From Alphaproteobacteria bacterium (GTDB lineage: Bacteria > Pseudomonadota > Alphaproteobacteria > UBA2966), in NCBI GenBank assembly GCA_018650465.1, contig JABIFY010000002.1, forward strand, positions 1-64,000: a stretch of 64,000 bases of DNA, in the 5' to 3' direction. This document shows, in pieces, positions 41,424-42,628 of this stretch; the stretch's first letter is position 1; every line of letters begins with the position of its first letter. The position numbers and the translations under genes are program-made. Below the pieces are notes generated by a model that had not been told where the DNA came from, did no database searches, and saw only the letters and a list, made by a program, of their open reading frames with translations.

Positions 41424-41864
41424 TCAGCTGCAGCTGGCAGCATTTTTGGCGCGTGGCGGTGCCTTGTCCAGAAGTTGCTTGATGATCCCCTGACTGGTCT
41501 GAGCGACAACGCGTCCAACCTCGCCTTGTTGGTTCAACATCACCAGCGTGGATTGACGACTGATGCGCAAATTCTGACTGACGGGCGATCGGGCGTGAGC
41601 ATCCCAATCAACATAGACGAAGGCAATATTCTGGTCGTAGTTGGTGTTGGCAGCACGTAAATCCCCGATCACACGGACCTGGCGTCGACATGTGCTTCAC
41701 CAGGAAGCGCCAAACTCAAGAAAGACAGAACAACCTTTTGCCAAGGCAGAATCCACGGCCTGCGGTGAATATGGTATTTTGGCTGCCGCCTGTACCGCGC
41801 CTGATAACAACAAGGGCAGAAACATCGACAGTGCCGCGATTACCGGCAACATCATCTTTTTCAA
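41424..41864 (-). CDS. Periplasmic thioredoxin-like protein with in-frame TGA at the first active-site Cys (candidate selenoprotein)
   Basis: Reads as one 146-residue protein if the TGA at 41697-41699 is decoded. A TTG start at 41864 has AGGAGG six bases upstream and gives a signal peptide (KKMMLPVIAALSMFLPLLLS, ending AVQAAA). The thioredoxin core follows: CSVFLEFGASW-[TGA]-STCRRQ, then FVYVDWDAHARS and RQSTLVMLNQQGEVGRVV. Relatives have WCxxC here, so TGA stands exactly for the first catalytic Cys. The frame downstream is open for 90 codons and family-like. It lies 35 bp after ccdA, its natural electron donor. Either a selenocysteine (UxxC) protein or a newly inactivated gene; no selenocysteine machinery is in this window. 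Confidence 0.7.
41670..41694 (-). promoter_or_regulatory. Candidate bacterial SECIS hairpin just after the in-frame TGA
   Basis: From the third base after the TGA the minus-strand RNA can pair CACAUG with CGUGUG and, after a two-base bulge, GAC with GUC around the loop GCCAG. The loop begins with G and contains the start of AGGUC, a word resembling the apical loop of the E. coli fdhF SECIS at nearly the same distance. Weak by itself; suggestive with the TGA position. Confidence 0.35.
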
Positions 41865-41899
41865 AACAAACCTCCTGGTAAAACTCAAATAAGCAAAAC

Positions 41900-42628
41900 T
41901 CACAGGGAAACCGAGAAATCCTGTAACCATAGCGGCAGAATATCCAATAATTGCCCCTCCAGCCAATGGTCGAAGCCAAACAATATGGCCGCGCCAACGC
42001 ACAAAAACGTGATCCCTAATAATGGCTTTGCTCGTTCCGCCAGCACACCCAACGTCTTTTTGCGGCGGATCAGGGCCTCGCGGGTGCCAAAGGCCAGGAC
42101 GATTACAATGCTGGATACGCCAAGGGCAAAAGACGCCATGATAGCCCCGGCCCAAACGATATCCTTGCCTTGAGAGGCCAGTGAGATCGCCCCGCCCAGG
42201 GTTGGGCCAATGCACGGTGACCAAACAGCACCCAGCATGACACCCCCCAGAAACTGGCCACCGAGTCCCGATGTGCGGCCGGACATGTCGTCCTCCATAA
42301 GGCGCTCGTTAGCCCGGCCAGCAAAACCGGCTGTCGCGGCGGCAAAAGCGTCGCTAAACCGCGGAACCATCAGGACAATTCCGAAGCCAACCATCAGCCA
42401 CGCCCCCGCTGTTGTCATCCAGCGCTGATCAATACCGACAGACGCCCCCAGAACAATGACGAACAAGCCCAGCACCACAAAAGAAAGGCTAAGGCCTGCT
42501 GCCAGCGCAAAAGGTCCACGCCTGTCCGCCTGCAACGATGACACCAGCACAATAGGTAATACCGGCAGAACACAAGGGTTCACCAGGGTCAATAATCCGG
42601 CAAGATAACCAAGAAATAGTTCTGGCAA
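41900..42628 (-). CDS. ccdA: CcdA-family thiol-disulfide electron transporter
   Basis: Membrane protein that carries reducing power from cytoplasmic thioredoxin to periplasmic partners. About 242 aa with six hydrophobic helices; the two redox cysteines are in LLTLVNPCVLPVLPIVLV and AVWSPCIGPTLGGA. I chose a TTG start at 42628 because AAGGGG lies seven bases upstream and the first CcdA helix begins at once; the frame remains open upstream without conserved sequence. It precedes the thioredoxin-like gene in an operon. Confidence 0.9.
   Translation of the reverse strand: MPELFLGYLAGLLTLVNPCVLPVLPIVLVSSLQADRRGPFALAAGLSLSFVVLGLFVIVLGASVGIDQRWMTTAGAWLMVGFGIVLMVPRFSDAFAAATAGFAGRANERLMEDDMSGRTSGLGGQFLGGVMLGAVWSPCIGPTLGGAISLASQGKDIVWAGAIMASFALGVSSIVIVLAFGTREALIRRKKTLGVLAERAKPLLGITFLCVGAAILFGFDHWLEGQLLDILPLWLQDFSVSL

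What the first reader, a model, noticed from the sequence alone, without database searches (positions are those of the whole stretch)
41424..41864. Candidate selenocysteine thioredoxin (UxxC) paired with CcdA
Seen: on the minus strand, signal peptide and thioredoxin core are in one frame, interrupted only by TGA at 41697-41699, precisely where WCxxC relatives carry their first catalytic Cys (GASW-TGA-STC). The frame stays open for 90 family-like codons to a second TGA. Known: Sec is inserted at UGA and often replaces catalytic Cys in thioredoxin-fold proteins; CcdA (41900-42628) feeds electrons to such periplasmic partners. Inference: this is a selenoprotein. A chance nonsense mutation hitting exactly that codon with no other decay is possible but less tidy.
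Basis: partly seen in the sequence, partly recalled or inferred. Interest (0 to 1): 0.88.

Follow-up and report, generated by a model that had tools for sequence, protein, structure and literature searches.

The report
Periplasmic selenocysteine thioredoxin paired with CcdA
A marine alphaproteobacterium appears to make a periplasmic thioredoxin whose key catalytic cysteine is replaced by selenocysteine, read from an in-frame UGA codon, next to the gene for the membrane protein that probably recharges it; this adds a well-supported but unannotated branch to a known class of selenium proteins.

Summary
A 146-codon minus-strand frame (41424-41864) encodes a signal peptide plus thioredoxin domain, interrupted only by TGA at 41697-41699, where relatives have the first Cys of WCxxC.

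Evidence that this TGA is selenocysteine:
- The genome has tRNA-Sec, selA, selB and selD.
- Ten distinct orthologues from marine Alphaproteobacteria all have TGA there. tRNA-Sec was found in 9 of those 10 genomes, and in none of 17 genomes tested that carry Cys forms.
- The frame beyond the TGA is under protein-level selection (dN/dS about 0.15).
- Codons +5 to +10 after the TGA show no synonymous change in the Sec genes (0/196 same-residue codon pairs) against 57% in the Cys genes. They form a bSECIS-like hairpin with loop CGUGY.
- The motif TGA-N19-UCCGUGYGA occurs only twice in the 4.8-Mb genome: here and in a SelW-like selenoprotein gene.

ccdA lies directly upstream in nearly all orthologues, Sec or Cys. 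Best reading: CcdA passes cytosolic electrons to this periplasmic UxxC thioredoxin. The final substrate is unknown. UxxC thioredoxins are a known kind; this CcdA-linked branch has Ser/Ala where thioredoxins have cis-Pro and fits no curated NCBIfam model.

The parts
41424..41864 (-). Coding sequence of the UxxC thioredoxin (TTG start, internal UGA=Sec, terminal TGA)
   Evidence: Translation, Pfam, AlphaFold model with mean pLDDT 88.6 and a thioredoxin fold
41697..41699 (-). In-frame TGA = selenocysteine codon (residue 56, first position of UxxC)
   Evidence: TGA in all ten distinct orthologues of the Sec group; TGC/TGT in the Cys forms
41688..41690 (-). Resolving Cys codon (Cys59 of U-S-T-C)
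   Evidence: Invariant in 40 aligned relatives
41662..41683 (-). bSECIS-like hairpin: GCC-A-GRUC-[CGUGY]-GAUC-RR-GGC, apical loop starting 21 nt after the UGA
   Evidence: 97% of pair cells form, 14-50% when the helix is slid by one to three columns; Cys homologues lack it; zero synonymous change over codons +5 to +10
41669..41699 (-). TGA-N19-TCCGTGYGA motif, one of only two in the 4.8-Mb genome
   Evidence: Pattern search of five genomes
41787..41864 (-). Predicted signal peptide (hydrophobic, AVQA-A cleavage-like), residues 1 to about 26
   Evidence: Read by eye; low-confidence stretch of the model; no signal-peptide predictor was available
41550..41552 (-). Ser105 at the place of the thioredoxin cis-proline (RQSTL, where thioredoxins have IPTL)
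   Evidence: Ser in 36, Ala in 4 of 40 relatives; position by alignment with solved thioredoxins
41430..41432 (-). C-terminal Cys145 in a short tail seen only in the family of this genome
   Evidence: Cys near the C-terminus in P0001, P0002 and the gene of L009; the tail is absent from the other Sec forms
41871..41876 (-). AGGAGG ribosome-binding site of the thioredoxin gene
   Evidence: Sequence
41900..42628 (-). ccdA-like gene (DsbD_TM, 242 aa), upstream partner in the same orientation
   Evidence: Pfam PF02683; upstream of the thioredoxin gene in 33 of 35 loci

Best explanation
The gene encodes a secreted thioredoxin-fold selenoprotein. SelB with Sec-tRNA(Sec) reads the UGA at 41697-41699 as selenocysteine, guided by a bSECIS hairpin immediately downstream, giving a W-U-S-T-C active site in the periplasm. 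CcdA, from the upstream gene, most likely carries electrons from cytosolic thioredoxin across the inner membrane and re-reduces the Sec-Cys selenenylsulfide. The selenothioredoxin then reduces a periplasmic disulfide, sulfoxide or peroxide substrate that is not encoded next to it. Shown by sequence: gene, machinery, TGA conservation, RNA element, ccdA pairing. Inferred: Sec insertion in the cell, periplasmic location, direction of electron flow. Unknown: the substrate. The confidence given is for the selenoprotein reading; for the CcdA-fed reductase role I put about 0.8.
For: Machinery in the same genome: tRNA-Sec 69.1 bits, ARAGORN tRNA-SeC(tca); selB 468 bits and selA 600 bits beside it, selD 428 bits, all above curated cut-offs. 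Ten distinct orthologues with TGA at one codon. tRNA-Sec in 9 of the 10 TGA genomes and in none of 17 genomes tested with Cys forms. Selection beyond the TGA: dN 0.166, dS 1.08 against the same-genus orthologue. RNA constraint: 0/196 synonymous differences at codons +5 to +10 in Sec genes against 934/1635 in Cys genes; upper stem complete in all ten Sec genes and in no Cys gene. The same loop at the same spacing in a SelW-like CxxU gene; the motif search finds only these two genes in G000, and the reversed control pattern finds none. ccdA directly upstream in 33 of 35 loci. Thioredoxin fold predicted with confidence.
Against: The hairpin is no more stable than shuffled sequence (mean z 0.1), so its support is conservation, not energy. 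Covariation is slight: one compensated pair and one G-U/A-U pair, with 58/500 shuffles reaching the observed score. No tRNA-Sec was found in one TGA genome (G396 of L091, a MAG). In L009 (G003) no ccdA lies directly upstream. No expression or labelling data exist.
Confidence: 0.95

Rival explanations
1. A pseudogene or sequencing/assembly error: a chance nonsense mutation in an ordinary WCxxC thioredoxin.
For: The window is a draft assembly (163 contigs); a single TGC/TGT to TGA change would give the same reading.
Against: Ten distinct genes from independent assemblies carry TGA at the same codon; downstream codons are under protein-level selection; RNA-level constraint after the TGA.
Confidence: 0.01
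2. UGA is read as Trp or Cys genome-wide (a reassigned code), not as selenocysteine.
For: The frame is open if TGA is read as any residue.
Against: TGA is the ordinary terminator of this very gene and of ccdA; long neighbouring genes are open under table 11; the genome has the full Sec machinery; the in-frame TGAs seen sit at catalytic U positions of Trx and SelW.
Confidence: 0.01
3. Selenocysteine is inserted, but the protein is not a CcdA-driven reductase. It works as an oxidase/isomerase, a peroxidase-like enzyme or a metal-binding protein, helped by Ser in place of the cis-proline.
For: Ser/Ala replaces cis-Pro in all 40 relatives. The Trx-fold survey PMC2757866 says that this proline may prevent metal binding to CxxC and that peroxiredoxins have Arg at that place. 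L009 has no adjacent ccdA.
Against: Adjacency to ccdA in 33 of 35 loci, in Sec and Cys forms alike, points to a reductive relay; both catalytic positions are kept in all 40.
Confidence: 0.15

Closest known systems
Sec-containing thioredoxins and Trx-like selenoproteins (UxxC; 'Thioredoxin PF00085', 'Trx-like 1 COG0526', 'Thiol:disulfide interchange protein' in PMC13188914, PMC9312934 and PMC2398784)
   Same: Thioredoxin fold, Sec at the first catalytic position of UxxC, bSECIS after the UGA, marine bacteria; 321 'Trx-like 1' selenoproteins are counted in GOS, some of which may be this branch.
   Different: Secreted, in a two-gene unit with ccdA, Ser/Ala at the cis-Pro position. No NCBIfam model (June 2026) reaches its cut-off (best TIGR01068, 31.8 of 96.8 bits). 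CcdA is not mentioned in the main text of the four selenoproteome papers searched.
Roseobacter-type periplasmic WCxTC thioredoxins downstream of ccdA (e.g. L096-L120; Pelagimonas, Ruegeria, Shimia)
   Same: Direct homologues (about 40-52% identity), same ccdA-trx gene pair, same Ser at cis-Pro, same fold.
   Different: Cys in place of Sec; no bSECIS hairpin; no tRNA-Sec in the ten such genomes tested from this scan.
CcdA-fed extracytoplasmic thioredoxins such as pneumococcal Etrx1/Etrx2 (PMC3914529) and the SoxV/SoxW pair
   Same: A DsbD_TM/CcdA membrane protein paired with a secreted thioredoxin; in pneumococcus the redox partner is a methionine sulfoxide reductase.
   Different: Those use Cys; no sox or msr gene was recognised beside the pair in the neighbourhoods listed. 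The analogy is to how it works, not family membership.
Edwardsiella thioredoxin-like protein Trxlp (PDB 5zf2, 5zpv; PMC6636751)
   Same: Closest solved structure by sequence and fold (30% identity, TM 0.87 by target length), also with QST at the cis-Pro position.
   Different: CxxC protein, described as an effector of a fish pathogen; not a selenoprotein.

Membership tests
Bacterial selenoprotein (UGA decoded as Sec) | selA, selB, selD and tRNA-Sec in the genome | tested here: met
Bacterial selenoprotein (UGA decoded as Sec) | In-frame UGA at a position that is Cys in homologues, conserved among orthologues | tested here: met
   Ten TGA orthologues, Cys elsewhere
Bacterial selenoprotein (UGA decoded as Sec) | Coding constraint on both sides of the UGA | tested here: met
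   dN well below dS after the UGA; upstream dN is low (0.038) but dS was saturated
Bacterial selenoprotein (UGA decoded as Sec) | bSECIS hairpin just after the UGA with G early in a small apical loop | tested here: met
   Hairpin with loop CGUGY, G at loop position 2, zero synonymous change, absent from Cys forms; stability alone not above shuffles
Bacterial selenoprotein (UGA decoded as Sec) | Selenium present in the purified full-length protein | not testable with these tools
   Needs 75Se labelling or mass spectrometry
Thioredoxin superfamily, UxxC thioredoxin type | Thioredoxin fold and W-[CU]-x-x-C | tested here: met
   Pfam PF00085 above cut-off, fold match, invariant W55, U/C56, C59
Canonical thioredoxin | cis-Pro opposite the active site, before the third strand of the core fold | tested here: not met
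   Ser 36, Ala 4 of 40: a thioredoxin-like protein, not a canonical thioredoxin; TIGR01068 thioredoxin equivalog cut-off not reached
CcdA-coupled periplasmic thioredoxin | Adjacent ccdA with both transmembrane Cys | tested here: met
CcdA-coupled periplasmic thioredoxin | Electron transfer from CcdA to the thioredoxin | not testable with these tools
   Needs a biochemical or genetic redox-state assay

The most novel reading that the evidence does not exclude
A selenium-based transmembrane thiol relay: CcdA recharges a dedicated periplasmic selenothioredoxin that lacks the cis-proline, a combination not described in the selenoproteome papers consulted here, perhaps tuned for a hard-to-reduce or metal-linked substrate in low-oxygen seawater bacteria.
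Probability: 0.4. Interest if true: 0.6.

Novelty: new variant of a known kind. Interest (0 to 1): 0.5.

Why it matters
It adds an unannotated, CcdA-linked branch of UxxC thioredoxins to the selenoproteome of uncultured marine Alphaproteobacteria, and shows that the TGA splits a real gene that standard gene calling would report as fragments. It offers a natural Sec/Cys pair of the same ccdA-trx unit (this lineage against Roseobacters) in which the benefit of selenium in a periplasmic relay can be tested. The element shared by the Trx and SelW genes (TGA-N19-UCCGUGYGA) is specific enough to find selenoprotein genes in this lineage by pattern alone.

Tried and rejected
Pseudogene, sequencing error and code reassignment were considered and rejected (see rivals). 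Thermodynamic stability as evidence for the bSECIS failed: MFE folding of fixed windows gave different structures from sequence to sequence, and z-scores were near 0; conservation and comparison with Cys genes were used instead. Formate dehydrogenase as a further selenoprotein: no internal stop in the TIGR01553 matches listed for this genome; only matched stretches were seen. A sox-cluster role (SoxV/SoxW): no sox genes were recognised by eye in the neighbourhoods listed. No NCBIfam selenoprotein model covers it. One of the nine motif hits (G200:C187, L190) is not a recognisable selenoprotein gene and is taken as chance.

Full report
Observation. The minus strand at 41864-41424 reads TTG...TGA as one frame with a single internal TGA at 41697-41699. 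It starts with a hydrophobic secretion-type segment, has GASW-TGA-STC at the active-site place, and stays open for 90 codons to a second TGA. An AGGAGG stands 6 nt before the TTG. Read through, it matches Pfam Thioredoxin and Thioredoxin_7 above their cut-offs, and AlphaFold gives a confident thioredoxin fold (mean pLDDT 88.6; most of the domain above 95) matching many solved thioredoxins. The gene upstream, 41900-42628, is a DsbD_TM/CcdA protein with NPCVLP and SPCIGPT.

Machinery. The window lies in a 4.8-Mb draft genome; its nearest named relative (same genus) is an Alphaproteobacteria MAG. The same genome holds a tRNA-Sec (69.1 bits; ARAGORN tRNA-SeC, anticodon tca), selB and selA side by side next to it, and selD, all above curated cut-offs.

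Relatives. A search of 96 genomes found the same codon as TGA in the same-genus genome G001 (76% identity) and in G003 of the same family (53%). A class-wide search added G293 and G200 of another family, and a scan of 84,980 species added L090, L091, L092, L094 and L095. That makes ten distinct sequences, all W-TGA-x-T-C, from MAGs titled Alphaproteobacteria or Rhodospirillaceae bacterium where a title is known; several titles point to low-oxygen waters (SI isolates, which I take to be Saanich Inlet, and an Arabian Sea bin; the low-oxygen reading is my own knowledge). The 25 closest other homologues in that scan, mostly Roseobacters, have TGC or TGT. tRNA-Sec was found in nine of the ten TGA genomes (all but G396) and in none of 17 tested genomes with Cys forms, where the best match to the tRNA-Sec model is a tRNA-Ser or tRNA-Leu. 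In a tree of 40 relatives the Sec forms are one side of a branch with moderate support (72/68; 74% of bootstrap trees), so one origin is likely but not proven.

The codons beyond the TGA are used. Against the same-genus orthologue, the part after the SECIS region has dN 0.166 and dS 1.08. Codons +5 to +10 after the TGA show no synonymous difference at all among Sec genes (0 of 196 same-residue codon pairs; 44-59% in the segments outside codons +5 to +13), while Cys genes vary at the same codons in 57% of pairs. These bases form GCC-A-GRUC-[CGUGY]-GAUC-RR-GGC. Pairing is 97% in the Sec set and 14-50% when the helix is slid by one to three columns; the four-pair upper stem is complete in all ten Sec genes and in no Cys gene. 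Two cautions: the fold is not more stable than shuffled sequence, and covariation is slight (the shuffle control reaches the observed score in 58 of 500).

A second gene gave a further check. The genome has a SelW-like (PF10262) gene with CxxU at an in-frame TGA. Its downstream hairpin has the same CGUGC loop closed by UC/GA pairs, with the stem changed in a compensated way between genomes (CUCUC/GAGAG against CCCUC/GAGGG), and the same 19-nt spacing from the UGA. Searching TGA-N19-TCCGTGYGA in five genomes gave nine matches: four in Trx genes (G200's own Trx gene departs by one base), four in SelW genes, and one unrelated; in the window's genome only the Trx and SelW genes match, and the reversed control pattern has no match. 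The pattern was taken from these two genes, so the test speaks to its rarity in the genome, not to an independent discovery.

Function. ccdA is directly upstream in 33 of 35 loci, Sec and Cys alike (missing in L009 and L099), while the other neighbours change between lineages. The two genes thus form a stable unit. From the established roles of CcdA/DsbD (general knowledge) and of CcdA-fed extracytoplasmic thioredoxins (for example pneumococcal Etrx with its partner SpMsrAB2, PMC3914529, abstract), I infer that CcdA reduces this protein and that it reduces a periplasmic substrate. No substrate gene is linked. All 40 relatives have Ser or Ala at the cis-Pro place of thioredoxins; PMC2757866 states that this proline may prevent metal binding to CxxC, so metal binding or altered substrate choice is an open alternative. 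In the family of this genome a short C-terminal tail ends near a Cys (own gene, L008 and L009), which is absent from the other Sec forms; its role is unknown.

Known or new. UxxC thioredoxins and Trx-like selenoproteins are long known, including hundreds of marine reads (PMC1088965, PMC2398784, PMC13188914). What is new here is this particular branch: secreted, CcdA-paired, without the cis-proline, and not covered by any NCBIfam model at its cut-off. CcdA does not appear in the main text of the four selenoproteome papers searched. Whether some 'Trx-like 1' GOS reads belong to it could not be tested.

Noticed in passing
L188 (G000:C136:33661-33867); also L185, L186, L187: A second selenoprotein gene in the same genome: SelW-like (PF10262) CxxU with in-frame TGA and a bSECIS sharing the CGUGC loop and the 19-nt spacing of the thioredoxin gene.
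   Followed up: yes
G000, G001, G003, G200: The TIGR01553 formate dehydrogenase matches listed show no internal stop codon, so formate dehydrogenase, a common reason for Sec use in bacteria, does not seem to be a selenoprotein here; only matched stretches were inspected.
   Followed up: partly
window 41430-41432; L008 and L009: A short C-terminal tail with a Cys near its end in the thioredoxins of the family of this genome (ASCS, GSCT, KPCSG), absent from the other Sec forms; a possible extra redox residue.
   Followed up: partly
L009 (G003:C211): The only Sec-form gene without ccdA directly upstream in the sequence held.
   Followed up: no
G036:C1:2202083-2202979 (L055): G036, whose best tRNA-Sec model match is a tRNA-Ser, still has a SelD match above cut-off inside a 740-residue open frame: perhaps a fused SelD used for selenouridine or another selenium trait.
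   Followed up: no
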